Below, one piece after another: positions 1,362-21,135 of a DNA stretch of 22,870 nucleotides. The stretch covers positions 64,001 to 86,870 of the IMG/VR virus record IMGVR_UViG_3300036828_000615; one strand, given 5' to 3'. The DNA comes from a virus. The translations under genes and the position numbers were made by a program. The first letter of the stretch is position 1. Every line of letters begins with the position of its first letter. The notes beneath the pieces are model-generated. The model had not been told where the DNA came from. It did not search any database and worked only from the letters and a program-made list of their open reading frames with translations.

Positions 1362-2813
1362 CTAGAAAGTGGGCGCGGTCAAACCCGTGATCTCGACCAC
1401 GCTCTGCGGATATCGGCCGGCCGAAAATGCTAAGTAATTGTAGATTTGGAGCAGCACGGTCAGATTTTGCGCCTTGGTCTCGGGCAGCACGCGCGCCCGG
1501 ATCCCGCTCTCCCAGAGCACCAGGTCGGAAGTACGCGCGACGATGATGACGTCGTTCGTACCGGCCGCGGTGCCCACGCCCGCCGTGGTGGTGATGTTCG
1601 GGTCGGTCACGACCGGCAGCCCGTGCATCTGGCCCACGACCTGCTGGCTGGCGACCTCCTCGAGGATGCCCGCGGCGTTGAACGGGTTGTTGGCCGACGG
1701 CAGGAACAACGGGCGCTGCTGACCATCCAGCAGGGACAGGAACCAGCCCCAGCGCCGGGGGTGCATCACGATCACCTCGGCCGGCAGGAAACGGGTCGTG
1801 TGGATCGTCTGGATGGCGTTGGCGATCGCGGAGTACACGCCCTGAATCGTGACCGCCGAGGCCGGCACGGTACCGATGCCCGGCGTCTTGTCGACACCGA
1901 GTACCTGACCGCTGACGCCGGTGCCACTCAGCACCTGCTGGTCGGTCGAGGCGGCGTGCGCGGCGACCAGGTCGCGGAACACGACGTCGTCGAAGGCGAT
2001 CGGGCTCTGGTCGATCAGCTGGATCGAAACCCCTTGCGCGCCAGCCAGAGTGCACACCGGCGCGTTGATGAAGGTGTCGGTCAGATCGACGTCCACCACC
2101 GGCACGTTGTCGGCGGTCTGGATACCGACCGCGGTACCGGTCAACAGCTTGGGGATGTTGATGCTGTCGGTTCCACCGGGCAATGGTTGCCGCTGCACGA
2201 GATTGGCGAAAGCCCTACCGGGACGGGCCAATTCGACGTACTGGTCCATGAGCCAGGCGGGTGGGACCGCATATCCGCCGGAGCCGTCGACCCGGGAGAG
2301 GTCGCGGTACTCCTTGTACTCGTCGAGCGTGGCGACGTCCTGGGCGTGGCGGAACAGCCGCTCGCGGCTGGACCCGTCGTAGTCGATGTTCATCTGGTGC
2401 CTGATGAGGTCGTTGACCCAGGACCGCTGTCGATTGCCCTTGGTGTAGATGGCCTGTTCCTTGACCGATACCAGGCTGTTGGTCGCCTTGCGGATACCGG
2501 CCAGGTTCTTGGCGATCTGCCCGGTGCGCTCCACCTCGGAGCGAACCTCGTCGATGCGTTCGTCGAGGCCGATGATCTCGGCGCCCTCGCTGCGCATGTC
2601 CTTCATGTAGCGGCGGTACTCGCCGTCTTCCTCGGGCTCGAGGTCCTCGCGGCCCTGCTCGCGGGCGAGCAGCAGTACCGCTTCGGCCTTCTGCTGGCTG
2701 CGGGCGCGCTTCTCGGCCGTGGCCTCGCGCCGCTTGACGAGTTGGCTCAGGAAGTCTTCCAGGCCGCTGGAACCGACACCGGTGTCCAGGCGGCTTTCAA
2801 GCATCTCGGTCAT
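1362..2813 (-). CDS. Major capsid protein, HK97 fold
   Basis: 483 residues, ATG at 2813 behind AAGGA. Residues 1 to about 118 are charged and strongly helical (KRREATAEKRARSQQKAEA, DERIDEVRSEVERT), like the coiled-coil scaffolding delta domain of HK97-type capsids that the prohead protease removes. The shell domain follows: SGGYAVPPAWLMDQYVELARPGR near 178-200, the TDSINIPKL strand, the internal DQQVLSGTGVSGQVLGV segment with its Gly-rich turn, the ANAIQTIHTTRFLPAEVIVMHP spine helix and strand, and the C-terminal LPVVTDPNI...RTSDLVLWESG region. Family knowledge predicts self-assembly into hexamers and pentamers of an icosahedral head. Neighbouring protease and portal genes agree. The exact cleavage site was not determined. 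Confidence 0.95.
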   Translation of the reverse strand: MTEMLESRLDTGVGSSGLEDFLSQLVKRREATAEKRARSQQKAEAVLLLAREQGREDLEPEEDGEYRRYMKDMRSEGAEIIGLDERIDEVRSEVERTGQIAKNLAGIRKATNSLVSVKEQAIYTKGNRQRSWVNDLIRHQMNIDYDGSSRERLFRHAQDVATLDEYKEYRDLSRVDGSGGYAVPPAWLMDQYVELARPGRAFANLVQRQPLPGGTDSINIPKLLTGTAVGIQTADNVPVVDVDLTDTFINAPVCTLAGAQGVSIQLIDQSPIAFDDVVFRDLVAAHAASTDQQVLSGTGVSGQVLGVDKTPGIGTVPASAVTIQGVYSAIANAIQTIHTTRFLPAEVIVMHPRRWGWFLSLLDGQQRPLFLPSANNPFNAAGILEEVASQQVVGQMHGLPVVTDPNITTTAGVGTAAGTNDVIIVARTSDLVLWESGIRARVLPETKAQNLTVLLQIYNYLAFSAGRYPQSVVEITGLTAPTF

Positions 2814-6447: not shown

Positions 6448-6849
6448 TCAGCCCCTCATCACCTTGGAGGTGGCCACCCCGAGCAGGATCAGCGCGATCC
6501 CGATGATCGCCAGGCCCAGCGCCGGATGCACCAGCCACCCGGCGACGCTCAGCGCGGTGATCCCGGTCAGCTCCAGCAGGGTGGAGAACAGCTCACGCCA
6601 GTCGAAGCCCGGCTCGCCCACCGGCTCGGGCAGGTTCTTCGGTGTCACCACCGACACCGGCTTCTCCGGCTCCTTGTCCCCGTCCTTGTCCTTCTTGGCC
6701 TTGTGTGGTGGCTCGGGCTCGTCGGCCCAGGGCGGCGGATCGGGCAGCAGCATCTCCGCGCGGCGCTGGTCCTCGAGCGCCTCCCGGGCGTCGGCGTACA
6801 GCTTGCCGCCGCCACCGAAAGAGACCACGTTGTCAGGAGAATCGCTCAT
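6448..6849 (-). CDS. Two-TM membrane protein between TerL and portal
   Basis: 133 residues, ATG at 6849, overlapping the end of TerL by 17 bases and stopping two bases before the portal start. Residues 1 to about 80 are hydrophilic with a Lys/Asp/Glu-rich stretch (PPHKAKKDKDGDKEPEKP). The C-terminal half has two hydrophobic segments (LLELTGITALSVAGWLV and GLAIIGIALILLGVATS). Small membrane proteins at this place are seen in actinophages, but their function is not established. A holin is conceivable but not supported, since no lysin gene is nearby. Confidence 0.72.
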   Translation of the reverse strand: MSDSPDNVVSFGGGGKLYADAREALEDQRRAEMLLPDPPPWADEPEPPHKAKKDKDGDKEPEKPVSVVTPKNLPEPVGEPGFDWRELFSTLLELTGITALSVAGWLVHPALGLAIIGIALILLGVATSKVMRG

Positions 6850-8428
6850 CGGCTTCCTTTCGCCAGGTGTCGAGGGTTTCTTCGTCGGGCCACTCCCAGA
6901 TCGTGGGTGGCCCCGGGGTCGGCGGCGGGTTGTTGAGCAGCCACACCGCCCCTGCGACCGCGACCAGCGGTGCGGCGTCGACCGGCGAGTTGCGCCGGGA
7001 GAAGAACCAGGCGTCCCCCGACGTGCGCGCGATCGTCGAGGCCGCGGCCCGGTCCAGGATCGCCGACGGGCGGTGGCGGATGGTTCCGTTGACGATGCCG
7101 TCGTAGAACTCCCCGGCGCCGCTGGCGAGCTGGGCCACCGGCGCGCCCCATTCCACCACGTCGAGCCCGGCCGCGCGCAGGTCCTCGATCATCGACGAGG
7201 CCGGTGCCCCGGTCTTCTGCACGCACAGTCCGGCGAAGTTCGCCTTGCGTTCGGCCAGCCACGCAGGCACCCACTCGGTGCCGGTGACCGGGGTTTTGAG
7301 CACCTCGGCGTGGATCTTGCCGTCGGCCCGCAGTGCGGCCATGGCGATGTAGGCGCGGGTGCGGTGGTAGTTGACGTCGACGCAGATGTAGGCCGGGTTG
7401 GCCTTGTCACGCTCCGAGTCCTTGTCCTTGGTGTCGGCCCACGCCTGGGCCGGGATGATGCCCGGGTCCAAAGAGTCCACCCACTGACATAGGTATTCGG
7501 TCTGGAAGCCCGGCATGTCCCCGGCCTCCATCGCCTCGAACTTGCCCATCAGGTCGTCCATACAGAACTCGTTGAGCAGCCCCAGCGCAGGCTGCGCCAG
7601 GTGCCAGTACTCGGGCTTACGCGGGTCCACGTCGTCGGGTACCGACCACTCGAAAAACCCGGTGCGGGTGCGCTCGGTGTTCCGCGTGACGATCGCGCGC
7701 ATGGCGGTCTCACGCAGGCTGCGCAGCACGATCGAGCGATTGTCCCCGGCGTTGGAGGTGACCAGCAGCTGGCTGCACGGGCGCACCGTGGTGGTCGGCT
7801 CAATGGCGCGGTAGGCGTCCCAGGTGGAGTGCGTGCGCAACTCGTCGAGCCACGCGAAGTCCACCGGCAGGCTGCGCCCGCCCGAGGAGTTGGCGGTCAC
7901 CGCGCGCCACAGCCGCCGGTAGGTGAGGATCGCGCGGTGCTTGCCGTTGGTGACGGCGTGGTTGAGCAGCTCGGGGGCCAGCAGCGGATGATCGCGCATC
8001 TCGTCCACGCAGTCCTTCAGTGTGGACTCCGCGTATTCCAGGTTCTGCGCGGCGACCACCGCCAGCTTCGCCGCCGGCCAATGCTTGCTGCCGCGCCCGC
8101 GCTCGTCCATGAACAGCCGCCAGAGCCCCAGGCCGCGGCCCCACTTGGTCTTGCCCTGCTGGCGCCCGACCATCACGATCAGGATGCGGAAGCGGAACCC
8201 GGTGTTGTCGGTCTGCTTCTCCAGCGCGCGGTAGTAGAGCCATTTCTGCCAGGGCAGCAGATGCCAGCCCAGGATCATTTCCAGGAAGTAGCAGCACAGC
8301 GGGCCCCAGGTGGCCTCGGGCCTGATGCCGTACTCAGCCTCGGGATCGACGTGTTCGGGCAGCGGAGGAGTGAACATCCGCGGCGTGGTGGACCCGATCC
8401 GTGGATCGACGTCGAGTGCAGTGCTCAT
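6833..8428 (-). CDS. terL: Terminase large subunit (TerL)
   Basis: 531 residues. The ATPase half shows WHLLPWQKW near 55-63 (adenine-binding Q motif), Walker A VGRQQGKT at 87-94, and Walker B with catalytic acid in VDFAWLDEL at 189-197 (D195, E196), followed by the LLVTSNAG coupling motif near 221-228. The nuclease half has ICVDVN with D351 and a late Asp (D484) in SPVDAAPLVA, as in RNase H-fold terminase nucleases. It pumps and cuts concatemeric DNA into the prohead through the portal. The start ATG overlaps the stop of the preceding small gene (ATGA), and its end overlaps the membrane-protein gene. Confidence 0.95.
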   Translation of the reverse strand: MSTALDVDPRIGSTTPRMFTPPLPEHVDPEAEYGIRPEATWGPLCCYFLEMILGWHLLPWQKWLYYRALEKQTDNTGFRFRILIVMVGRQQGKTKWGRGLGLWRLFMDERGRGSKHWPAAKLAVVAAQNLEYAESTLKDCVDEMRDHPLLAPELLNHAVTNGKHRAILTYRRLWRAVTANSSGGRSLPVDFAWLDELRTHSTWDAYRAIEPTTTVRPCSQLLVTSNAGDNRSIVLRSLRETAMRAIVTRNTERTRTGFFEWSVPDDVDPRKPEYWHLAQPALGLLNEFCMDDLMGKFEAMEAGDMPGFQTEYLCQWVDSLDPGIIPAQAWADTKDKDSERDKANPAYICVDVNYHRTRAYIAMAALRADGKIHAEVLKTPVTGTEWVPAWLAERKANFAGLCVQKTGAPASSMIEDLRAAGLDVVEWGAPVAQLASGAGEFYDGIVNGTIRHRPSAILDRAAASTIARTSGDAWFFSRRNSPVDAAPLVAVAGAVWLLNNPPPTPGPPTIWEWPDEETLDTWRKEADERFS

Positions 8429-8916: not shown

Positions 8917-9378
8917 TCATCCCAGCTTTTCGCGCTGCTGGCGGTAGCGGGCCAGCTCGTCGAGCTGGGGTCCGTCCACCTCGATGTCGTTGTCGTTCAT
9001 CGGCGGGATCGGCGCACGCACGACGTCGGCCAGGCCGTACACGTCGATCTGCTCACGCAGCAGCCGGCGCGCCACCTCGATGGCCTTTAGGTCGCCGGTC
9101 TCGACATGCTCTAACGCCTTGCGCACCAGCGACTCCATCCGCGCCAGCAGGATGATCATGGCGTTCTCGTTGCGCAGGATGTGATCCTTGGTGGCGCGCT
9201 CCAGCTCGGTGCGGATGATGCGCCCGACGTGGTAGTGGCTCAGCTTGACCTGCGCGTTGGCGGCGATGTCGCGCTGGCTGTGCCCGGCCAGGAACAGATC
9301 CAGGATCAGGTTGTCGCGCTTCTCCCGCTGCGCCGGGGTCAACCGCGGCGGGGGTTTGGGTTTGCGTTTGGCGGCCAT
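8917..9378 (-). CDS. Terminase small subunit (TerS)-like DNA-binding protein
   Basis: 153 residues from ATG at 9378, behind AGGAGA; the open frame extends further upstream, but that part is the out-of-frame shadow of the neighbouring gene. A basic Pro-rich start (MAAKRKPKPPPRLTPAQREK) leads to a helix-turn-helix near 24-56 (LILDLFLAGHSQRDIAANAQ, HVGRIIRTEL). A long helical region follows (MESLVRKALEHVETGDLKAI, VARRLLREQIDVYGL) and a C-terminal tail. N-terminal HTH plus helical oligomerisation region is the usual TerS architecture; TerS recognises packaging sites and loads TerL. It is separated from TerL by two small genes, one on the other strand. Confidence 0.72.
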   Translation of the reverse strand: MAAKRKPKPPPRLTPAQREKRDNLILDLFLAGHSQRDIAANAQVKLSHYHVGRIIRTELERATKDHILRNENAMIILLARMESLVRKALEHVETGDLKAIEVARRLLREQIDVYGLADVVRAPIPPMNDNDIEVDGPQLDELARYRQQREKLG

Positions 9379-9386
9379 GGCTTCTC

Positions 9387-11171
9387 CTAGTGCCCGACCG
9401 GGAAGCCGTAGTCGACCAGCGGTCGCTCTCCGGCTTCCCGCAGCGCCAGGATATGGCGCATAAGCCATTGTCGCCCGTTGGCGTTTCGATAGGGCTTCAT
9501 CAGTGCTTCGTTGCGGGCGATGTCGCGATCCCAGCCCGGCGAGTCGGCCTTGGCGTCGTGGTATTCGCCGGCGTTGGTGTTGTGCTCGAACGCGTAGACA
9601 TTGCCCTCGATGCGCTTGAGCCTCGACAGCGTCTGCACGATCGCGGTGAACGCGGTGTCCTCCCAGCCCCAGCCGCAGTTGCCGGTGAAGTACACCTTGC
9701 CGTTGCGCCGGGCCAGCCATGTCCCGTTCTCAGTCGTCGGGCACCACACGATTCCCTCGACCTGGTGACGCGTGTGTGTCCCCTTGGACAGCATGAACCG
9801 GCGTTGACGTCGGATCGACACGACGGTCATGCCGTAGCCGTACTTCGTCATAACCGGCCTGGTCACCGACGAGGTGGCATAGCCAGCCAGGATGCACGCG
9901 AACTGGAATGACTCAGCGGCAGCTTGGTTCTTCTGGGCCAGCTGCTGCTCATAGGACCGGGTCCGGGTGTGACCGTCAGCCCAGAGGGAGGTCTGGATGA
10001 AAGATTCCAGCTGAGACTGGGTGAGCGATATCAGGAACTCGTGGGTGACCACCCGGTTCGGGGCACAGGACTGGACGAGAGCACCGGCTTCAGCGTTGAG
10101 GTTGAAAATGGCGGTCTGCCCCGCACGGGTTTCCCGCCAGGCTGGAGGTACTTCGGGCGAGCGGCCCGACCGTCGCTGTGCGCCTATCGGTGGCCCCAGT
10201 GATCGACGCAGTGCCGAGCGGATCCTTTCGCAGTGGTCCGGGTTGACGGTTACCGACTGGCTGATCGAAACGGTTCTCGCCCGGGAGCCGTCCCGGTTCC
10301 GGGAGATGCAGCCCTCGGTCCAGAACCAGCCCACTAACTCCACGAAAGCGTCGGTGTATTTCGGCTCCGTGGGCAGGTCCGAGCAGTGAGCAGCGGTCGG
10401 AACGTAGTCCTGCTGCTGGAAGGTTCCCGTCGTAGTCCACGTCCGACGGGTCCGTCGGAATGATCTCTTGCCAACCTGGCGGACGTTCCAGTTCCGCTCG
10501 ACCGGCCAGCGGTGATCCATCGTGCTCAACGAGGAGTGGGTCTTGCTTTCGATCCCGACCATCTCCCGGCTACCGGGGTAGACGTTCACCCGCTGAAGCG
10601 GTTTCCATTCGCTCATAGCCGTGTCGTGGTTCAGGGTTAAGACAGGCTCACCGATAGTGATATCGGTATATCGCTTCCAGCCCTGACTGGTCAGAATCTC
10701 GGTGGGCTCATCCACGCAGAACTCCGGCGGTTGCCCGCCCAGACGCCAGTACTCGGTCTGGGTGGCGACCAGACAGCCACCCACCCCGTTGACCCCGTCA
10801 CCGTCCCAGGAGGTGGTCATGTAGGGCGCCCGGTCCAGCTGGTCGAACGGCGTATAGAGGTAGTCGGTGCTCAGAATGCGGTAGTGGGTGAAGGGCCAGC
10901 AGACGCACTGCTGCGGGTCGGCGACCGCCGCGCGCACATTGTCGAGCACGGGAATCGTGTCGGCGTCGCAGATCACCACGACCTCGGTGCGGGCCTTGCG
11001 CACCGCGTTGTTGCGGGCCTGGGCGAGGCTGAAGATCTCGGTGTCTGAGTCGGCGGTGACCACCGGCCAGCCGACCTGCTCCCAGAACGCCATCACCCGC
11101 TCGAAGATCGGGATCCGCGACGGGGACGGGCGCCACGGAATGCACACGGTGGCTTCAGGTTTCGTGGACAC
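9387..11171 (-). CDS. Glycosyltransferase (GT-A, DxD) interrupted by an intein
   Basis: 594 residues from GTG 11171, which has GAGG six bases upstream; an ATG at 11177 is possible. The host protein is 247 residues after removing the intein. Residues 1-151 give a GT-A fold: VCIPWRPS, then VVVICDADTIP with the metal-binding DAD at 69-71, then VNGVGGCLVATQTEYWRLGG. After the intein comes CGWGWEDTAF, the GW-x-ED acceptor motif of polypeptide-GalNAc-transferase/Glyco_transf_7C-like enzymes. The N-extein ends PPEF and the C-extein starts C, so splicing restores PPEFCGWGWED. The start overlaps the upstream GT gene by 17 bases. Likely substrate is a nucleotide sugar, with a virion protein or a glycan as acceptor; acceptor unknown. 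Confidence 0.88.
   Translation of the reverse strand: MSTKPEATVCIPWRPSPSRIPIFERVMAFWEQVGWPVVTADSDTEIFSLAQARNNAVRKARTEVVVICDADTIPVLDNVRAAVADPQQCVCWPFTHYRILSTDYLYTPFDQLDRAPYMTTSWDGDGVNGVGGCLVATQTEYWRLGGQPPEFCVDEPTEILTSQGWKRYTDITIGEPVLTLNHDTAMSEWKPLQRVNVYPGSREMVGIESKTHSSLSTMDHRWPVERNWNVRQVGKRSFRRTRRTWTTTGTFQQQDYVPTAAHCSDLPTEPKYTDAFVELVGWFWTEGCISRNRDGSRARTVSISQSVTVNPDHCERIRSALRRSLGPPIGAQRRSGRSPEVPPAWRETRAGQTAIFNLNAEAGALVQSCAPNRVVTHEFLISLTQSQLESFIQTSLWADGHTRTRSYEQQLAQKNQAAAESFQFACILAGYATSSVTRPVMTKYGYGMTVVSIRRQRRFMLSKGTHTRHQVEGIVWCPTTENGTWLARRNGKVYFTGNCGWGWEDTAFTAIVQTLSRLKRIEGNVYAFEHNTNAGEYHDAKADSPGWDRDIARNEALMKPYRNANGRQWLMRHILALREAGERPLVDYGFPVGH
9678..10718 (-). mobile_element. Intein with LAGLIDADG homing endonuclease (347 aa)
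   Basis: Starts at Cys1 (TGC, 10718-10716) in CVDEPTEILT, the block A form. Block B is HSSLSTMDHRW with the TxxH histidine. Two dodecapeptide motifs of a DOD endonuclease are present, FVELVGWFWTEGC (about 125-137, Glu) and SFIQTSLWADGHT (about 239-251, Asp), separated by about 100 residues. Block F is VWCPTTENGTWLARRNGKVY and block G ends FTGN followed by extein Cys+1 at 9677-9675. The last Asn is preceded by Gly instead of the usual His, a tolerated variant in some inteins. All splicing and cutting residues otherwise look intact, so the element is probably active and mobile. Confidence 0.93.
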
Positions 11172-11835
11172 CGTCATCCTCGTCGTGCACGTACTTCCAC
11201 ATCCCGGGCCCGGCCGGACGCCGCCACACCGAGTGGATCGTCGGCACGTCCACCAGTGTGTAGCCGGCGGCCACCAGCGCGAAGGACTCGTAGACGTCGG
11301 CGCCCCAGTGCGCGTAGGGGCCGTGGATGTCGGGCGGATAGGGGACCGCGCGCAGCGCCTCGATCCGCGCCGCGAACACCCCGCCCTGGATGTGCAACTC
11401 GGGCAGCGCGGAGTCAAAGCCCATCGCGGCCGGCGGACCCGCGTCGGCCAGCGTGCCGGTCATCCCCGCCCTCGGGTTGTTGATCAGCGGCGTCAGCAGA
11501 TCCCAGGGCCAGCTCGGGTCGTAGCTGTGGCCGTGGTTGGTGCAGACGTAGAGCAGGTAGGGATGGCGCGCGAGCTCGGCGGCCACGTTCAGCGCCGGCC
11601 CGCTTTTCAGGTTCGCCCCGCGCTGCCAGCGGTAATGCGGTTCGCACACGCCGTTGTCGTACACCGCCGTGGCCAGCTTGTTGGCGCGCCGCGTGCTGTT
11701 GTCGATGACGATCAGCTCGGCGTCGAGCTTGTGGCGCAGGTGTCCCAGCGCGGGCACCAGGTCGCGCTGCAGCCGGACCAGGGCCCGGTCCTCGTTGTTG
11801 TGCACGATCATCACCGCGCTGACCCCGAACCTCAT
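11155..11835 (-). CDS. Glycosyltransferase family 2-like protein
   Basis: 226 residues from ATG 11835, which overlaps the stop of the methyltransferase gene (ATGA). The start MRFGVSAVMIVHNNEDRALV and the ELIVIDNSTRR strand-turn near 40-50 are typical of the nucleotide-binding half of GT-A enzymes. The middle YLLYVCTNHGHSYDPSWPW stands where a DxD would be expected, but no DxD is present there. The later HIQGGVFAARIEALRAV and HWGADVYESFALVAAGY segments resemble the acceptor half. It may be metal-independent, or act with its neighbours on the same glycan. It overlaps the intein-bearing GT downstream, suggesting one operon. Confidence 0.75.
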   Translation of the reverse strand: MRFGVSAVMIVHNNEDRALVRLQRDLVPALGHLRHKLDAELIVIDNSTRRANKLATAVYDNGVCEPHYRWQRGANLKSGPALNVAAELARHPYLLYVCTNHGHSYDPSWPWDLLTPLINNPRAGMTGTLADAGPPAAMGFDSALPELHIQGGVFAARIEALRAVPYPPDIHGPYAHWGADVYESFALVAAGYTLVDVPTIHSVWRRPAGPGMWKYVHDEDDGVHET

Positions 11836-12482
11836 CGCGCCGCCTTGCGCAGGATCACCAGCGAGGGCCAGAAGTGGGCGAACTCGACCGCATAGCCGCG
11901 CCAGAACCGCTCGGGATACAGCGGTTCGGTGGGGCGCCAGTGCAGCCGGTAGCTCACCTCGTCGACCATGCCTTTGAACCACTGCACCGACGTCGGCCCC
12001 TGCGCCCGGGCGCCCTGCGGGTCTTCGAGCTCGGTGTAGGCCAGCCAGGTGTCCTCGCAGACGTAGAACCCACCGGGGCGGACGAGCGGCCACACCGCGG
12101 CGAAGGTGGCGATGGTCAGCTCGGAGCAGTGACTGGCGTCGTCGATGACGATGTCGAACAGGCCGTAGTCCTCGGCGATGCGTCCGGCCAGACCGGCGTC
12201 GGCCTGATCGCCGGTGAGAACCCGCACCCGGCCGGGTAGGTCCAAGGTCTTGGGCTGGTTGTCGATACCGATGACGGTGGCCTTGTCGAAGTAGTCGCTC
12301 CACATGCGCAGCGACTCGCCACCGGCGCGGGGATCGCCGTAGCCGCCGACGCCGTACTCGACCACGGTGATCGGCTCGAACCGCAGGTGCGAAAAATACC
12401 GCTCGTAGATCAGGGTGTAGGCGTGGTGCTCGGTGGACTTGTCGGTGTGATGCCGGATGGCCAGCTCATTAAGGGTTTCCAT
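11832..12482 (-). CDS. SAM-dependent O-methyltransferase, MycE/TylF-like
   Basis: 216 residues, ATG 12482 behind AAAGGGG. The start carries TDKSTEHHAYTLIYERYF, a hallmark of the MycE-like sugar O-methyltransferases. SAM motif I is VVEYGVGGYGDP (40-51), followed by ESLRMWSDYF and IGIDNQPK (71-78). DIVIDDASH at 110-118 holds the acidic and His residues that bind metal in this family. The family methylates hydroxyls of deoxysugars in macrolide and glycan pathways. Lying between glycosyltransferase genes, it probably methylates a phage-made glycan. The 3' end overlaps the next GT gene by ATGA. Confidence 0.85.
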   Translation of the reverse strand: METLNELAIRHHTDKSTEHHAYTLIYERYFSHLRFEPITVVEYGVGGYGDPRAGGESLRMWSDYFDKATVIGIDNQPKTLDLPGRVRVLTGDQADAGLAGRIAEDYGLFDIVIDDASHCSELTIATFAAVWPLVRPGGFYVCEDTWLAYTELEDPQGARAQGPTSVQWFKGMVDEVSYRLHWRPTEPLYPERFWRGYAVEFAHFWPSLVILRKAAR

Positions 12483-12642
12483 GTGCCCCTTTCACCCGTG
12501 CTGCGCCGCAGAGCACACAGCCGCCGTGCTCGAGATATTCATGCGGACACGGCGGCGGCCCGTGGCGCACCGCGCAACCCCACGGGCACCGCCCATCGGG
12601 CGTGATGTCGGTGCGGCCACAGAAATGGCACGGTGCAGGCAT
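12469..12642 (-). CDS. Small cysteine-rich zinc-binding protein
   Basis: From ATG 12642 the product is 57 residues; a TTG at 12663 would add seven. It has CHFCGRTD near the start, CPWGCAVRH in the middle, CPHEYLEHGGCVLCG near the end: eight cysteines with spaced histidines, enough for two zinc sites. The 3' end overlaps the methyltransferase start by 14 bases. No catalytic domain can be seen. The ribosome site is weak. It may be a protein- or nucleic-acid-binding zinc ribbon; function is unknown. Confidence 0.6.
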   Translation of the reverse strand: MPAPCHFCGRTDITPDGRCPWGCAVRHGPPPCPHEYLEHGGCVLCGAARVKGAHGNP

Positions 12643-12689
12643 CGGCCTATTGTCGGCCCACAACCCCGGCGTGGTTGCCCCGACACGCG

Positions 12690-13406
12690 CTAGCCATCTG
12701 GCTTACTCCATCCGTTGCAGTACCCCAGCGGCGTCGCCGCTGTCGCCCAGTTCTGTCGCGTTCCGCAGCTCCAGGCCCGCCGCTCACTGCGTGCCTCGTC
12801 GGGCCCGTACCCGATCGGTGTGTCATCGGCGTGATCGACCAGGCTGGGGACGGTGTAGCAGATGGGCATCTCCCAGTTCTGCGCCCACCGCGACACCGCC
12901 AGCGGATACTCCACTCGCGCATACCGCTGCTCAGCCGCGCCGAGTGTCTCGACCAGCTCGGGCAGCATCGCCTCGATCAGCGAGGTGCGGATCGCGTACC
13001 CCACCGACCCGATCAGACAGTCCGCGGTGATCCAGGCCAGATTGCGGCGCTGCGCCGTCATCAGGGCTGCGCGCATCTGGCGCTGCACCTGGCCCGAAGG
13101 ATTGCCGGTACCCAGGTAGAGCCCGATGACAGGGGCCGGCGTGTGCCGCACCGCCTGGGCGATCTCGACACGGAAGGCCGACACCGGCTCGGCGTCGTCC
13201 TCGAGTACCACGCTCCAGCCGGTGTCGTACCCGGCCAGCTCGCCCAGCACCTTCAGATGGTTGCCCGCACAGCCCAGCGTGCCGTCGTCGACGTTGCAGT
13301 AGTCGGCCTTGACGGCATCGAACAGCGCGTGGGCCCGCTCGACCCGCGCGCTGTGGGCGACGATGCCGATCGCGATGTGGTCGACGATGCCGATCGCGAT
13401 GCTCAC
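12690..13406 (-). CDS. Glycosyltransferase family 25-like
   Basis: 238 residues from GTG 13406, overlapping the preceding stop (GTGA). Features of LPS-type GT25 enzymes: LGCAGNHLKVLGELA near 44-57, then WSVVLEDDAEP with the EDD metal/nucleotide-sugar motif at 69-71, and GSVGYAIRTSLIEAMLPEL later. GT25 enzymes transfer galactose or glucose from UDP-sugars to lipooligosaccharide or to hydroxylysine; the phage substrate is unknown. The N-terminal strand is odd: IAIGIVDH and IAIGIVAH are tandem copies from a 24-bp duplication, either of which could serve as beta-1. The tail after PSLVDHADD is probably disordered. Confidence 0.72.
   Translation of the reverse strand: MSIAIGIVDHIAIGIVAHSARVERAHALFDAVKADYCNVDDGTLGCAGNHLKVLGELAGYDTGWSVVLEDDAEPVSAFRVEIAQAVRHTPAPVIGLYLGTGNPSGQVQRQMRAALMTAQRRNLAWITADCLIGSVGYAIRTSLIEAMLPELVETLGAAEQRYARVEYPLAVSRWAQNWEMPICYTVPSLVDHADDTPIGYGPDEARSERRAWSCGTRQNWATAATPLGYCNGWSKPDG
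13359..13406. repeat. 24-bp tandem duplication at the GT25-like gene start
   Basis: GACGATGCCGATCGCGATG occurs at 13359-13377 and again at 13383-13401, a 19-base exact match with a 24-base period. It encodes IAIGIV twice and keeps the frame, so it is a recent in-frame slippage or duplication. Confidence 0.8.
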
Positions 13407-13588
13407 CCGTCTACCTGTGTCGTCTGCAACGCGTAGAGGCGATGGGCGTTGCTGACGGCGTCACGGACAGCTTCCAGGTAACGGTCTGCACGGCCCTGAA
13501 AATCGTGTGCGTCGGCGGAGTTGTCGAGAACTTGGCGCAGCGACGAGAAGGCCAGCATGATCATTTCGTCAAGCGGGTTGTTGGTCAT
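13403..13588 (-). CDS. Small helical hypothetical protein (61 aa)
   Basis: ATG at 13588 lies inside the overlap with the preceding gene (ATGA) and the TGA overlaps the GT25-like GTG start (GTGA), so it is locked into the operon. The sequence MTNNPLDEMIMLAFSSLRQV continues as one amphipathic helical protein (DRYLEAVRDAVSNAHRLYAL). No motif or family is recognised; a structural or regulatory peptide is possible. Confidence 0.6.
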   Translation of the reverse strand: MTNNPLDEMIMLAFSSLRQVLDNSADAHDFQGRADRYLEAVRDAVSNAHRLYALQTTQVDG

Positions 13589-13920
13589 CGCTTCTCTTTC
13601 TTCAGCCGCGCCGTCACCCGGTCGATGGCGGCGTGGAAGCGTTCCTGGAAGTCAGGGTCGGAGATCTCCCCCTCCACAATCTCGTCGGCCACCTTGGCCA
13701 GCTTCAATGGCACCTTGCGACCGGACGGGATGACCGCGATGATCGGCTTGTCCAGCATGATCATGAAGCCCAGCTCGACGGCGAACTTCACGTCCAGCTT
13801 CCCGTCTCCGGGGACCAGGGACACGGTGACCGCGCTGTCTTTGATCATCGGGATCAGTTCGGCGCGGATGCGGCGCTGGTAGTCCTGCCATTCCGGGCCG
13901 TCGAACGGGTCCCCGCTCAT
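13585..13920 (-). CDS. Rossmann-like phage protein, possibly nucleoside 2-deoxyribosyltransferase-like
   Basis: 111 residues from ATG 13920, chosen over GTG 13929 because it overlaps the upstream stop (ATGA). The core IKDSAVTVSLVPG, DVKFAVELGFMIMLDKPIIA, VIPSGRKVPLKLAKVAD has the beta-alpha-beta pattern, with a conserved-looking FAVELG-x-M helix, seen in 2-deoxyribosyltransferase-like and related nucleotide-binding folds. In those enzymes an acidic residue on such a helix is catalytic; E in AVELG could play that part. It is small for a complete enzyme. In a glycan cassette it might act on nucleotides or sugars, but this is speculative. Confidence 0.5.
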   Translation of the reverse strand: MSGDPFDGPEWQDYQRRIRAELIPMIKDSAVTVSLVPGDGKLDVKFAVELGFMIMLDKPIIAVIPSGRKVPLKLAKVADEIVEGEISDPDFQERFHAAIDRVTARLKKEKR

Positions 13921-14300
13921 CCCACGCACCCCCGCATGTGCAGGATCTCCCAGAGCACCCAGACCGCCAGCACGAATGCGACCAGCGCGACGATAAGTGC
14001 CGCGCCCATCGCCATCAGCAGCCCGTGCCGGGGAGCCGGTGGCGGGGGTTGGTCGTCCTCAACCCATGGCTTTTTGTCCGCCACCGGCTCCGGCTCAATG
14101 CGCGGCAGCTCGTCGGTCCGGTGCATGCCGCGGAACATCGGGGCGAAGTGATGGTGCCGCGTGCGGTCCCAGGTGAGCGGGCCGCCCTTGTGTACGGGGC
14201 CACCGTGCCCCTCGGGCAGCTCGCATTCGTAGGTCGGGCCGCCCAGCAGCCCGCCCCGGTCCCGGCACAGCGGCACTTCCACCGCGAGGATCTCTGTCAT
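13917..14300 (-). CDS. Single-TM protein with Cys/His-rich N-terminus
   Basis: 127 residues from ATG 14300 (MTEILAVEVPLCRDRGGLLG), which has GAGG five bases upstream; an upstream start at 14333 would add 11. The first 50 residues carry CRDRGG, ECELPEGHGG and VHKGG, a plausible metal site like those of small phage proteins that begin C...C...H...H. A Pro-rich linker leads to one hydrophobic helix (LLMAMGAALIVALVAFVLAV) near the C-terminus. A tail anchor in the host membrane is likely. Function is unknown. Confidence 0.65.
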   Translation of the reverse strand: MTEILAVEVPLCRDRGGLLGGPTYECELPEGHGGPVHKGGPLTWDRTRHHHFAPMFRGMHRTDELPRIEPEPVADKKPWVEDDQPPPPAPRHGLLMAMGAALIVALVAFVLAVWVLWEILHMRGCVG

Positions 14301-14377
14301 GTCGTCCTCACCTGGCCTGTGATGCTTGCCCATTGACCCCCAGCTCTTTCATTTCGGTTCCCTTCTCGTGGCTTCAC

Positions 14378-14566
14378 TCATCCGTCATCCCGTGGGCTGG
14401 GCATGTAGATCGGGGTTCCGTTGATGACGCACCGCCACTCATACCAGCCCGTGTTGGCGATATAGCCGCCCCGGTCATGGCACCACTGCCGCTGAGACTC
14501 CATGCCGCCGCCCCGGTTGCAGCAACCGGCGAGCAGTAGCGCCAACGCGGCGGCGAGCACCCTCAT
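14378..14566 (-). CDS. Small predicted lipoprotein
   Basis: 62 residues from ATG 14566, which overlaps the upstream stop (ATGA). The start MRVLAAALALLLAGCCNRGG is a type II signal peptide with lipobox LAGC and the modified Cys at 15. The mature part is short with two more cysteines (WCHDRGGYIANTGWYEWRC) that may pair. Phage lipoproteins on the cell surface can block superinfection or help lysis; nothing here decides between these. No lysis gene is adjacent. Confidence 0.7.
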   Translation of the reverse strand: MRVLAAALALLLAGCCNRGGGMESQRQWCHDRGGYIANTGWYEWRCVINGTPIYMPSPRDDG

Positions 14567-14889
14567 CGAACCGAGTCGATCTGGCGGTCCACCCACATCT
14601 GTGCGTAGGCCACCCCGGCCTCGTCGGGCAGATCGGGATCGGGGATTTCGAGGATCTCGTTGACCTCGGCGAACCAGCCGTCAGCGATACCGCTGATCGC
14701 TACCCGCCGCCAGGACAGCGGGCCGATGATCGCGCTCAGCGTCTTGATCCGCTCCCCGATGGATTCACAGCCGATCGTCCACGCCTGGAACGGGCCGGCC
14801 GCCGCCTCCGAGTGGGCGTTGCGCAGGTGGCCCCAGAGCCATTCCAGCTGGAAGTCGGCCCACTCACGCAGGGCGGCGTCGTCGGTCAT
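14563..14889 (-). CDS. Hypothetical protein, first gene of the leftward operon (108 aa)
   Basis: ATG at 14889 follows AAGGAG at a rather long distance; an upstream in-frame start exists but has weak coding character. The product MTDDAALREWADFQLEWLWG is Trp-rich and helical, continuing FQAWTIGCESIGERIKTLSA and ending WVDRQIDSVR. No domain is recognised. It lies next to the divergent control region and would be transcribed first in the leftward unit that leads into the sugar-modification genes. Confidence 0.65.
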   Translation of the reverse strand: MTDDAALREWADFQLEWLWGHLRNAHSEAAAGPFQAWTIGCESIGERIKTLSAIIGPLSWRRVAISGIADGWFAEVNEILEIPDPDLPDEAGVAYAQMWVDRQIDSVR

Positions 14890-15047
14890 TATTCGGTTCT
14901 CCTTCTCGTGGTGCCACGATAGTAACGGTAAACCTTGCAAACGGCGGAATGTGGCTGTGAACACGCCCGAAACGCCGAAAAGTCCTGCATTGATTTGCCG
15001 TTACCGTGGTGTAGGTTCGGCGGGGAATCAACGCTTAGGAGGACAGC
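14890..15047. promoter_or_regulatory. Divergent promoter region with matched motifs
   Basis: The 158-base gap separates divergent operons and is less GC-rich than its neighbours. TTTGCCGTTACCGTGG (14994-15009, plus) and TTTACCGTTACTATCGTGG (14932 to 14914, minus) are the same motif facing outwards, differing by one mismatch and a 3-base insert. Each lies 25-40 bases before a start codon. On the plus strand TTGATT (14990-14995), a 16-base spacer and TAGGTT (15012-15017) form a plausible sigma-70-like promoter overlapping the motif. The rightward gene has the strong site AGGAGG before ATG 15048. A shared regulator of both operons is possible. Confidence 0.55.
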
Positions 15048-15848
15048 ATGGCCAAGGGCATGAGGGTCTGGAAGGCCGGGGACAATCTGGACGAGTCGAT
15101 CGGGTTCAAGTTCCGGGTGACCGATGCCGACGAGTTGGTCAAGGCCGCCGCCGAGAACTTCGTCGAGGAGCAGGCCCGCGCCTGGCGTGATGTCCGCCAA
15201 TGGGCCGATGACCAGATGGAGCTGATCGAGGTTGAACCCGGCGGCTCCCCCAACGGCCCGGGCGCGAGCCTGTCGTTGACCGAGAACCTACGCACCGAGC
15301 TGCCCAAGCTGTGGGTGCGCCACAACATCCGTTCGGTGCTCGACGTGGCGTGCGGCGACCTGAACTGGATGCGCCACGTCGACTTCACCGACCTGACCGC
15401 CCCCGAGCACACCAGGCCGTTCAACTACTTCGGCTGGGACATCGACCCTGAGCTGATTGTGCGCGCACAACAGCGCGCGGGCGAGATGAAGGGCAACCCG
15501 CACACCTGGTTCGAGATGCACAACATCCTCGACACCCCGTTCCTCAACGTGGACTGCATCCTGGCCCGGCACATCCTGATCCACCTGCCCAACGACTACA
15601 TCAGCGCGGTGCTCGACGAGATGCGTCACAGCCACGCCAAGTATCTGTTGGCCTCCAACTTCCCCGACGAGACCAACGACTTCATCTACGACCCGACCCG
15701 CTACGCCTGGATCGGCTACATGGAGCATCCGGTCAACCTGGAAGCCCCGCCGTTCAACCTGACGACCAAGATCGACGCGATTCCCGAGACGCCCGGCCCG
15801 GCCGGGGTGCTCACCGCGCGTCACGAGCTCGCGCTGTTCAAGCTATGA
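15048..15848 (+). CDS. Class I SAM-dependent methyltransferase, glycan-locus type
   Basis: 266 residues, ATG 15048 behind TTAGGAGGACAGC. SAM motif I is SVLDVACGDLNW (96-107). Motif II is YFGWDIDPELI (127-137) and motif IV region is DCILARHILIHLPNDY (169-184). YLLASNFPDETND follows, with a C-terminal PFNLTTKIDAI and LALFKL. The D-x-ACGD-x-NWM pattern with a HLP-containing strand matches methyltransferases found in polysaccharide and phage glycan loci. The first 90 residues form an unrecognised helical lead. It faces away from the glycosyltransferase operon but shares the control region, so it may methylate the same product. Confidence 0.8.
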   Translation: MAKGMRVWKAGDNLDESIGFKFRVTDADELVKAAAENFVEEQARAWRDVRQWADDQMELIEVEPGGSPNGPGASLSLTENLRTELPKLWVRHNIRSVLDVACGDLNWMRHVDFTDLTAPEHTRPFNYFGWDIDPELIVRAQQRAGEMKGNPHTWFEMHNILDTPFLNVDCILARHILIHLPNDYISAVLDEMRHSHAKYLLASNFPDETNDFIYDPTRYAWIGYMEHPVNLEAPPFNLTTKIDAIPETPGPAGVLTARHELALFKL

Positions 15849-19615: not shown

Positions 19616-19774
19616 ATGGCAAATGCGGAGGTGTGTCGGCACTGCGGCGAACCCATCCTCAAATTCAACTTCCGCGACCAGGGCGAGCAGTGGTGGCACG
19701 CCAACCCGCTGCGCGGATCCACCACCTATCTGCACTGCGCCGCCGACATTGACCGGCCCAGGGCCGCGCCGTGA
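19616..19774 (+). CDS. Zinc-knuckle miniprotein (52 aa) upstream of DNA methyltransferase
   Basis: ATG 19616 begins MANAEVCRHCGEPILKFNFR, with a C-x2-C knuckle at 7-10, then QWWHANPLRGSTTYLHC with a third cysteine and histidines that could complete the site. The TGA overlaps the methyltransferase GTG start (GTGA), so the pair are translationally coupled. Similar Cys-His mini proteins occur in actinophages near DNA-modification genes; role unknown. Confidence 0.65.
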   Translation: MANAEVCRHCGEPILKFNFRDQGEQWWHANPLRGSTTYLHCAADIDRPRAAP

Positions 19775-21135
19775 AGCCCTACTACCACGACGATCAGCTC
19801 ACCCTGTACCACGGCGACGCCCTGGCCGTAGCGCGCGAGCTGCCCGATCGCGCCGTGGACTGCATTGTCAGCAGCCCGCCGTATTACGCGCTGCGTGACT
19901 ACGGCGACCCCGGCCAGTACGGGCTCGAGGACACCCCGGCCGATTATGTGGAGCACCTGCGCGCGCTGTTTTTCGAGCTGCGCCGGGTGCTGGCCGCCGA
20001 CGGGACCTGCTGGCTGGTGCTGGGCGACAGCTACAGCAGCAGGAAGGGCGCGGCCGCCGACGACAAGAACCTGATGGGCATGCCCTGGCGGGTGGCTCGT
20101 GCGCTGCAGCAACCGCAGTACGTCGGCAAGATTCACAATGAAGCGGACCGCGCGTGGCTCGCTGCGATGGTCGACGGTGAAGGCTGCATCGCCATGCATC
20201 GCCGGATGTCTGAAGAACGTAAGCGACCGACCTTCGCGCCGGTGGTCCAAGTGGCTAACACCAATCTGGGATTACTTGAACGCTGCCAACAGGTAGCGGG
20301 CGTTGGGACAATCTCGCATAGCGACCGCGGGCGGAACCGGCGCATTTATCGCTGGTGTGTAATGAGTAACCAAGCGCGTCAACTACTTCGCGAGCTATAT
20401 CCGCACCTAATTGCCAAACAACCGCAAGCTCGCGCCGCGGTAGCCGCATCGTGCGGGGGTGGCCGCTGGGGAGAATCGTCGCCCGGCGCGGAGCGCGCAT
20501 GGTTAGAGATAAAGGCCCTCAACAAGGGCGGCACGCATGATGGCGGATGGCCCGTCCCGGCCAGCATGTTCACTCCTGGATGGATTTTGAGAAATGCCAT
20601 TATTTGGTCGAAGCCCAACACGATGCCCGAGTCGGTCACCGACCGGCTCGCCTCGCGCTACGAGCACGTGTTCCTGTTCGCCAAGCAGCAGCGGTATTTC
20701 TTCGACCTCGACGCGATTCGCGAAGCGCATTCGCCGATCACACTGGACCGCTCGGCGCGTTCGGAGCGCAAACCGTATTCGGCCCGCGGCAGGAGCGGGA
20801 TGGCCAAGGTCCCCGGCCTGGGCGCCTACGGCGCGATCTCGGCGGGCAGGCGCACCCTCAACGAGGCCGGCGCCAACCCCGGGGACGTGTGGTCGGTCCC
20901 CACCGAGAAATTCCCCGGCGCGCACTTCGCCGTCTATCCCGTGGCGCTGGCGCAGCGCGCTATTTCCGCCGGGTGTAAACCCGGCGGAGTCGTATGCGAT
21001 CCGTTCAACGGCAGCGGTACCACCGGGCTGGCCGCCCAGAAAACCGGGCACCACTACATCGGCATCGACATCAGCCGCGACTACCTGGACCTGGCCCTGA
21101 GCACGCGCTTGAGCCAGGCCGCCCTGGACTTCTGA
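19771..21135 (+). CDS. DNA methyltransferase (N4/N6 class) with homing-endonuclease-like insertion
   Basis: 454 residues, GTG 19771. The catalytic SPPY (motif IV) is at 35-38 in VSSPPYYAL. AIIWSKPNTMPESV (276-289) and RYEHVFLF follow, and the SAM motif DPFNGSGTTG is at 410-419, with GIDISRDYLDLAL after it. This order (IV before I) is the beta class that methylates cytosine N4 or adenine N6. Without residues 116-269 the protein would be a normal 300-residue phage MTase reading ...ALQQP then GWILRNAIIW. It may protect phage DNA from host restriction. No cognate nuclease gene is beside it. The 3' end overlaps the convergent gene by 55 bases. Confidence 0.88.
   Translation: MKPYYHDDQLTLYHGDALAVARELPDRAVDCIVSSPPYYALRDYGDPGQYGLEDTPADYVEHLRALFFELRRVLAADGTCWLVLGDSYSSRKGAAADDKNLMGMPWRVARALQQPQYVGKIHNEADRAWLAAMVDGEGCIAMHRRMSEERKRPTFAPVVQVANTNLGLLERCQQVAGVGTISHSDRGRNRRIYRWCVMSNQARQLLRELYPHLIAKQPQARAAVAASCGGGRWGESSPGAERAWLEIKALNKGGTHDGGWPVPASMFTPGWILRNAIIWSKPNTMPESVTDRLASRYEHVFLFAKQQRYFFDLDAIREAHSPITLDRSARSERKPYSARGRSGMAKVPGLGAYGAISAGRRTLNEAGANPGDVWSVPTEKFPGAHFAVYPVALAQRAISAGCKPGGVVCDPFNGSGTTGLAAQKTGHHYIGIDISRDYLDLALSTRLSQAALDF
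20116..20577 (+). mobile_element. In-frame LAGLIDADG-type insertion in the DNA methyltransferase
   Basis: About 154 codons inside the MTase gene that are absent from the basic enzyme plan. The block starts QYVGKIHNEADRAWLAAMVD, and AWLAAMVDGEGC is a LAGLIDADG dodecapeptide with the acidic Asp/Glu. TFAPVVQVANTNLGLLERCQ, GVGTISHSDRGRN and YRWCVMSNQARQLLRELYPH follow, as in single-motif LAGLIDADG domains. There is no Cys/Ser first residue, no TxxH block and no terminal Asn, so intein splicing is unlikely. Codon third positions use more A/T (TTA, GTA, CTA, AAT) than the rest of the gene, suggesting separate origin. Boundaries are estimates. Confidence 0.75.

What the first reader, a model, noticed from the sequence alone, without database searches (positions are those of the whole stretch)
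9387..15848. Virion-sugar cassette: three glycosyltransferases and two sugar-type methyltransferases next to the head genes
A DxD GT, a second GT-A enzyme, a GT25-like enzyme and a MycE/TylF-like O-methyltransferase lie in one operon with TerS. A glycan-locus methyltransferase is divergently encoded from the same control region. A methylated glycan on capsid or tail is the simplest reading, and sugar-coated virions are known for some mycobacteriophages. This many different enzyme types together, with a possible nucleoside-type enzyme (13585-13920), may build an undescribed decoration.
Basis: partly seen in the sequence, partly recalled or inferred. Interest (0 to 1): 0.7.

Follow-up and report, generated by a model that had tools for sequence, protein, structure and literature searches.

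The report
Intein-split sugar-coat genes in phage
Beside its capsid genes this phage of actinobacteria carries a set of sugar-transfer and sugar-methylation genes, related to the sets that some mycobacteriophages are reported to use to coat their particles with sugar, and one of the sugar-transfer enzymes is interrupted at its active site by an intein (a self-splicing protein insert), a kind of host gene not listed for phage inteins in the survey I could read.

Summary
The cassette is real. The window is the right end of an 86.9-kb IMG/VR phage record; head genes, endolysin and homologues point to an actinobacterial phage. MT1, GT2, GT1 and TerS are tightly packed on one strand; a GT25-like enzyme lies upstream and a second methyltransferase (MT2) is divergent.

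The GT25-like gene is 41% identical to Che8 gp110 and matches Catdawg gp36 (Corndog gp38 counterpart); Che8 gp110 and Corndog gp38 are described as essential for capsid glycosylation. GT1 is a remote homologue of their neighbours Che8 gp109 and Catdawg gp35. MT1 is homologous to macrolide-sugar O-methyltransferases MycE and TylE. In most relatives GT1 lies beside TerS, TerL or the capsid gene. The target itself is inferred, not shown.

Seventeen distinct relatives have an empty site; two other contigs carry the same intein at the same site. All phage intein hosts in the 2016 mycobacteriophage survey bind nucleic acid; this one is a glycosyltransferase. Splicing is predicted from sequence only.

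Verdict: a known kind of cassette, a new variant because of the intein in GT1.

The parts
10719..11177 (-). GT1 N-extein (153 aa): GT-A domain with DAD motif
   Evidence: intein-free homologues aligned
9678..10718 (-). Intein in GT1, 347 aa: Cys1, block B TMDHRW, LAGLIDADG-like motifs (WFWTEG, SLWADG), block F VWC, C-terminal TGN, then Cys+1
   Evidence: homologue in Gordonia phage Woes portal annotated 'contains intein'
9387..9677 (-). GT1 C-extein (96 aa), begins CGWGWEDTAF, the Glyco_transf_7C motif
   Evidence: Pfam PF02709 in 10 of 10 intein-free homologues, not found in the unspliced ORF
11155..11835 (-). GT2: GT-A-fold glycosyltransferase without DxD (TNHG instead)
   Evidence: AlphaFold pLDDT 82; Foldseek PDB; alignment A2
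11832..12482 (-). MT1: MycE/TylE-type sugar O-methyltransferase homologue
   Evidence: 3ssm E 3e-36 and 8ia9 E 2e-29, IDDxSH and ED motifs shared
12690..13406 (-). GT25-like glycosyltransferase, homologue of Che8 gp110 and Catdawg gp36
13585..13920 (-). Small nucleoside 2-deoxyribosyltransferase-like protein; probably not part of the sugar system
   Evidence: relatives in ~70-72-kb mycobacteriophages lie at about 65-67 kb, whereas cluster-O glycosyltransferase genes lie near 18 kb
13917..14300 (-). Small protein with one predicted transmembrane segment
15048..15848 (+). MT2: class-I methyltransferase; homologues lie in GT/MT clusters beside head genes (Ariel gp17, prophiGD91-2 gp76) or just upstream of the MCP gene
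8917..9378 (-). Probable terminase small subunit (PHROG 645, annotated RNase E), 8 nt after GT1
6833..8428 (-). Large terminase (no intein here)
1362..2813 (-). Major capsid protein, candidate acceptor of the glycan
   Evidence: 52% and 56% identical to annotated MCPs of Hilltopfarm and prophiGD43A-5

Best explanation
This is a virion-decoration cassette of the Che8/Corndog kind. GT1 and the GT25-like enzyme, probably with GT2, build a short glycan on a structural protein (most likely the major capsid protein), and MT1 and MT2 O-methylate its sugars. GT1 is made as a precursor with a LAGLIDADG-type intein immediately before its GWGWED motif; the intein excises itself after translation and joins the exteins, restoring the active site. 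The intein spreads between GT1 alleles by homing. Shown here: gene content, homology, head-gene neighbourhood, empty and occupied sites, intein motifs. Inferred: enzyme activities, splicing, homing, acceptor, sugar identity and order of transfer.
For: GT25-like: 41% identity over 218 aa to Che8 gp110, profile hit to Catdawg gp36 E 1e-48; Che8 gp110 and Corndog gp38 are described as the essential glycosyltransferases for capsid glycosylation (PMC12363180). GT1 profile hits Che8 gp109 (E 5e-12) and Catdawg gp35 (E 3e-15), the genes just before those. MT1 matches MycE/TylE. MT1 and GT25 are also adjacent upstream of TerS in M. abscessus prophage prophiFSIL01-1. GT1 lies beside TerS, TerL or MCP in most relatives; 15 of 18 records of 30 kb or more with this MCP have it. 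In many relatives the MT1 slot holds a methyltransferase of another family (MTB), so a methylation step looks conserved. Intein: 17 distinct empty-site alleles; same intein at same site in L025 and L050; the three inteins form one clade (support 1.0) while their exteins do not; window-L025 identity is 66% in the intein versus 54% in the extein; position +1 is C, S, C in intein alleles against I 12, V 4, C 1 in empty ones.
Against: No glycan, splicing or mass data. The phage is known only as a metagenomic record. Of other phages with homologous heads, Hilltopfarm and prophiGD43A-5 have no GT1 match, so the cassette is not needed for such a head. Nearness to head genes fits virion modification but does not prove the acceptor. 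GT2 has no DxD and no homologue among 50,697 named phage records. The GT1 model is poor (pLDDT 65), so its fold assignment beyond GT-A leans on Pfam PF02709. No Pfam or NCBIfam intein model matched the insert itself; its identity rests on motifs, homologues and empty sites. The penultimate intein residue is Gly, not His. E-values are for a 20-protein set.
Confidence: 0.77

Rival explanations
1. The enzymes modify host cell-envelope glycans or glycolipids (superinfection exclusion or receptor change), not the virion.
For: GT-A and GT25-type enzymes also build cell-surface polysaccharides, and sugar methyltransferases modify surface sugars (own knowledge); the fold matches include surface-polysaccharide enzymes.
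Against: GT1, GT2 and MT2 keep to the head module in several different arrangements; the closest functional precedents modify the capsid (PMC12363180); none of the five enzymes has a clear transmembrane segment and no flippase-type gene was seen in the cassette.
Confidence: 0.13
2. The glycosyltransferases decorate a modified DNA base, with the nucleoside-type enzyme part of a nucleotide pathway.
For: A relative with a homologous terminase, Hilltopfarm, carries DNA-base modification genes (DpdA, QueD, QueE, FolE) at the same spot upstream of its terminase; other phages glucosylate DNA (own knowledge).
Against: No thymidylate-synthase-family gene matched in the record (controls rang). The Tet/JBP search was also empty, but its controls did not ring either, so that is inconclusive. 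The GT homologues belong to capsid glycosylation systems.
Confidence: 0.04
3. The insert in GT1 is not a working intein: a decayed insert that leaves GT1 dead, or a domain that stays in the protein.
For: No library intein model matched; decayed inteins are known (PMC3196547).
Against: Three open alleles with all splice-site residues, 63-66% identical to each other; the +1 residue is C or S in all three although I or V is usual in empty alleles; extein motifs kept; a relative is annotated as an intein.
Confidence: 0.06

Closest known systems
Corndog / cluster O head-gene cassette (gp35 O-methyltransferase, gp36, gp37, gp38; Catdawg gp33-36)
   Same: GT1-like and GT25-like genes adjacent, an O-methyltransferase, embedded in head genes; proposed in 2015 to modify the capsid (PMC4351075); glycosylation reported (PMC12363180)
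   Different: Lies between portal and protease; Catdawg's methyltransferase gp33 and glycosyltransferase gp34 were not matched by the window's families; no intein
Che8 gp108-gp110 virion glycosylation genes
   Same: gp110 is a 41% identical GT25-like homologue, gp109 a remote GT1 homologue
   Different: Located at the right end of the genome, not next to TerS; no MT1 or MT2 homologue matched among gp108-110
M. abscessus prophage prophiFSIL01-1 gp45-gp47
   Same: GT, MT1 (39%) and GT25 (39%) in a row just upstream of TerS
   Different: No GT1 match; no head-gene homology found to the window
MycE / TylE macrolide-sugar O-methyltransferases
   Same: MT1 aligns over most of its length with shared IDDxSH and ED motifs
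   Different: MT1 lacks their N-terminal region; its substrate is unknown
Phage inteins of the Woes portal / GMA3 TerL / F-cluster DNA methylase group
   Same: Homologous over the whole intein at about 27-41% identity; Woes and GMA3 share the splicing blocks, LAGLIDADG-like motifs and TGN ending
   Different: Host protein is a glycosyltransferase; the GT inteins form their own clade

Membership tests
Mycobacteriophage virion glycosylation cassette (Che8/Corndog kind) | Homologue of Che8 gp110 / Corndog gp38 glycosyltransferase | tested here: met
   41% over 218 aa, E 2e-47 to Che8 gp110; profile E 1e-48 to Catdawg gp36. Corndog itself was not found in the collection
Mycobacteriophage virion glycosylation cassette (Che8/Corndog kind) | Second glycosyltransferase homologous to Che8 gp109 / Catdawg gp35 | tested here: met
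   GT1 profile E 5e-12 and 3e-15, remote
Mycobacteriophage virion glycosylation cassette (Che8/Corndog kind) | Covalent glycan on capsid or tail protein | not testable with these tools
   Needs virion mass spectrometry
MycE/TylE sugar O-methyltransferase family | Homology over catalytic domain with the metal and catalytic-base motifs | tested here: met
   3ssm E 3e-36, 8ia9 E 2e-29; IDDASH and CEDTW aligned; the role of these motifs is own knowledge
MycE/TylE sugar O-methyltransferase family | Methylates a sugar hydroxyl | not testable with these tools
   Enzyme assay needed
Inteins | Cys/Ser at position 1, Thr-x-x-His block B, C-terminal Asn, Cys/Ser/Thr at +1 | tested here: met
   C1, TMDH, N347, C+1; residues as listed in PMC4031507
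Inteins | In-frame insert with uninterrupted alleles at the same site | tested here: met
   17 distinct empty-site alleles
Inteins | Self-excision and ligation | not testable with these tools
   Expression experiment needed
Class 3 inteins | Trp B:12, Cys F:4, Thr G:5 motif | tested here: met
   HRW, (I/V)WC, FTGN in all three GT inteins; block positions counted by hand; definition in PMC3196547
Class 3 inteins | No nucleophile at position 1 | tested here: not met
   Cys1 present in all three; mixed class 1/class 3 motifs, so no class assigned
GT7-type glycosyltransferases (for GT1) | Glyco_transf_7C domain | tested here: met
   PF02709 in 10 of 10 intein-free homologues, over the curated cut-off in L015; model matches chondroitin polymerase, beta4GalT7 and ppGalNAcT at Z 9-10.6
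GT25 family (for 12690-13406) | Pfam Glyco_transf_25 above cut-off | tested here: not met
   E 0.1, 12.9 bits against cut-off 24; called GT25-like only

The most novel reading that the evidence does not exclude
The intein is a post-translational switch: splicing of the precursor, sensitive to redox or metal state through its cysteines, decides whether GT1 becomes active and so whether progeny virions carry the glycan.
Probability: 0.08. Interest if true: 0.8.

Novelty: new variant of a known kind. Interest (0 to 1): 0.5.

Why it matters
The 2016 mycobacteriophage survey found that all phage intein hosts bind nucleic acid (PMC5050341). A group of inteins inside a coat-sugar enzyme breaks that pattern: either these elements can live in a gene that some phages with related heads do without, or the sugar enzyme matters more than its 'accessory' label suggests. 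It also extends the virion glycosylation genes, whose glycans are reported to shield phages from antibodies (PMC11256854, PMC12363180), to a wide set of uncultivated phages, with methylation as a recurring step.

Tried and rejected
DNA-base glycosylation was tested by searching the record for thymidylate-synthase and Tet/JBP families: no match (the Tet/JBP controls did not ring). The nucleoside-type gene as part of the cassette was set aside as unsupported, since its relatives are not consistently near glycosyltransferase genes. Synechococcus phage B23 seemed to extend into the GT extein, but its host gene is annotated as T4 gp55-like. A bacterial genome scan with GT1 found only two remote hits, in Saccharibacteria and Carboxylicivirga, so no host was identified. 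NCBIfam and Pfam gave no intein model match. A promoter scan was no better than chance. Freeman 2023 and Tori and Perler 2011 were not held, so statements about them rest on papers that cite them. Myrna, the third phage reported to be glycosylated, has no GT1 match.
Full report
The window is bases 64001-86870 of an 86,870-base virus record. Its large terminase is 48-51% identical to those of mycobacteriophages Hilltopfarm and Typha and of M. abscessus prophage prophiGD43A-5, and the capsid protein is 52-56% identical to those of Hilltopfarm and prophiGD43A-5. The record also encodes an 822-residue endolysin. No host was identified directly.

Observation. All five claimed enzymes are there. The GT25-like protein and both methyltransferases have strong PHROG matches. 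GT2 is nearly unmatched by sequence, but its model (pLDDT 82) has a GT-A fold, with best matches to a mannosyltransferase and other glycosyltransferases. It has no DxD: the equivalent residues are TNHG in four and SNHG in one of the five homologues. MT1 to TerS is tightly packed on one strand.

The hidden intein. The GT1 ORF contains 347 extra residues, from CVDEPTEIL to VYFTGN, between PPEF and CGWGWED. Eleven relatives were found first, and 58 loci with the GT1 alignment. Seventeen distinct alleles have no insert. Two other contigs, L025 and L050, carry the same intein at the same place. The three inteins form one clade apart from portal and TerL inteins, whereas on the extein tree the window groups with intein-free L015 and L025 with intein-free L049. 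Intein identity exceeds extein identity for window-L025 (66 against 54%) and L025-L050 (64 against 53%) and equals it for window-L050 (63 and 62%). These facts fit sporadic gain by homing.

The residue after the intein must be Cys, Ser or Thr for splicing (PMC4031507). In 17 empty alleles it is Ile in 12, Val in 4 and Cys in 1; in the intein alleles it is Cys, Ser, Cys. By a simple count, all three falling among the four C/S alleles of 20 has a chance of 4/1140, about 0.004, ignoring relatedness. The GT inteins show the Trp-Cys-Thr triplet that defines class 3 inteins (PMC3196547) but keep Cys1, so they have mixed motifs and I do not assign a class. A penultimate Gly also occurs in the Bethlehem RDF intein, which splices (PMC5050341). 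The insert splits the Glyco_transf_7C domain: that domain is found in 10 of 10 intein-free homologues but not in the unspliced window ORF. An unspliced enzyme is therefore probably inactive.

Hosts of the intein family. All 54 matching records among 50,697 named phage records were listed; where the annotation names a function, the host genes are portal, TerL, DNA methylase, DNA polymerase, or an endonuclease or DNA-binding label. None is annotated as a glycosyltransferase; several are hypothetical. Table 1 of the 2016 survey lists none either, apart from one unnamed hypothetical class, and the survey states that all phage intein hosts bind nucleic acid. Text searches found no mention of a glycosyltransferase intein, but most subscription papers could not be searched, so novelty is likely and not certain.

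What the cassette does. The GT25-like gene is 41% identical to Che8 gp110 and matches Catdawg gp36, counterpart by position of Corndog gp38. Che8 gp110 and Corndog gp38 are described as essential for capsid glycosylation (PMC12363180). The genes just before them, Che8 gp109 and Catdawg gp35, match the GT1 profile. In C1 phages such as Drazdys the GT1-like and GT25-like genes are gp240 and gp242. So GT1 plus GT25 is a recurring pair. MT1 is a MycE/TylE homologue; in relatives its slot often holds MTB, of another methyltransferase family. MT2 homologues lie in GT/MT clusters next to head genes in Ariel and prophiGD91-2, and just upstream of the capsid gene on the other strand in several relatives.

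Genomic association. GT1 lies upstream of TerS, between protease and capsid genes, or divergent from TerL, depending on the contig. Of 18 records of at least 30 kb with this capsid protein, 15 have GT1; two of the three without it start within about 2.2 kb of the capsid gene, so only one is informative as a real absence. Shorter records G027 and G035 also lack it although their TerS region is partly covered. A second sugar cluster (a methyltransferase, a family-2-type glycosyltransferase and a PHROG 12406 glycosyltransferase) lies at 33.4-35.8 kb of the record.

Judgement. The cassette is a member of a known kind, with its own gene arrangement and GT2 as an unmatched extra enzyme. The intein in GT1 is the new element. 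Enzyme activity, splicing and acceptor remain untested.

Noticed in passing
window 19771-21135 (+): DNA N6/N4 methyltransferase with an inserted LAGLIDADG/HNH-like segment (aa 123-225, PHROG 5046 E 2e-17), reminiscent of homing inserts known in phage methylases (PMC11855218).
   Followed up: no
L050 4158-7772; L033 7506-10046; L035 12798-15176: The large terminase of L050 is in three pieces and those of L033-L037 in two; the portal of L035 is also split. These look like further inteins, so this phage group may be intein-rich.
   Followed up: partly
L003 13453-15760 (record 33453-35760): Second cluster of a methyltransferase and two glycosyltransferases in the same phage, away from the head genes.
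   Followed up: partly
L024 2553-3269: Intein-free GT1 allele that nevertheless has Cys at the +1 position; could be an intein-loss scar or a ready acceptor site.
   Followed up: no
L038, L039, L040, L122: A second short GT1 fragment (residues 8-63) beside the full gene, possibly a partial duplication.
   Followed up: no
L164 2533-4911: Mycobacteriophage Pinkcreek gp135, a hypothetical protein between baseplate and minor tail genes, carries a related intein.
   Followed up: partly
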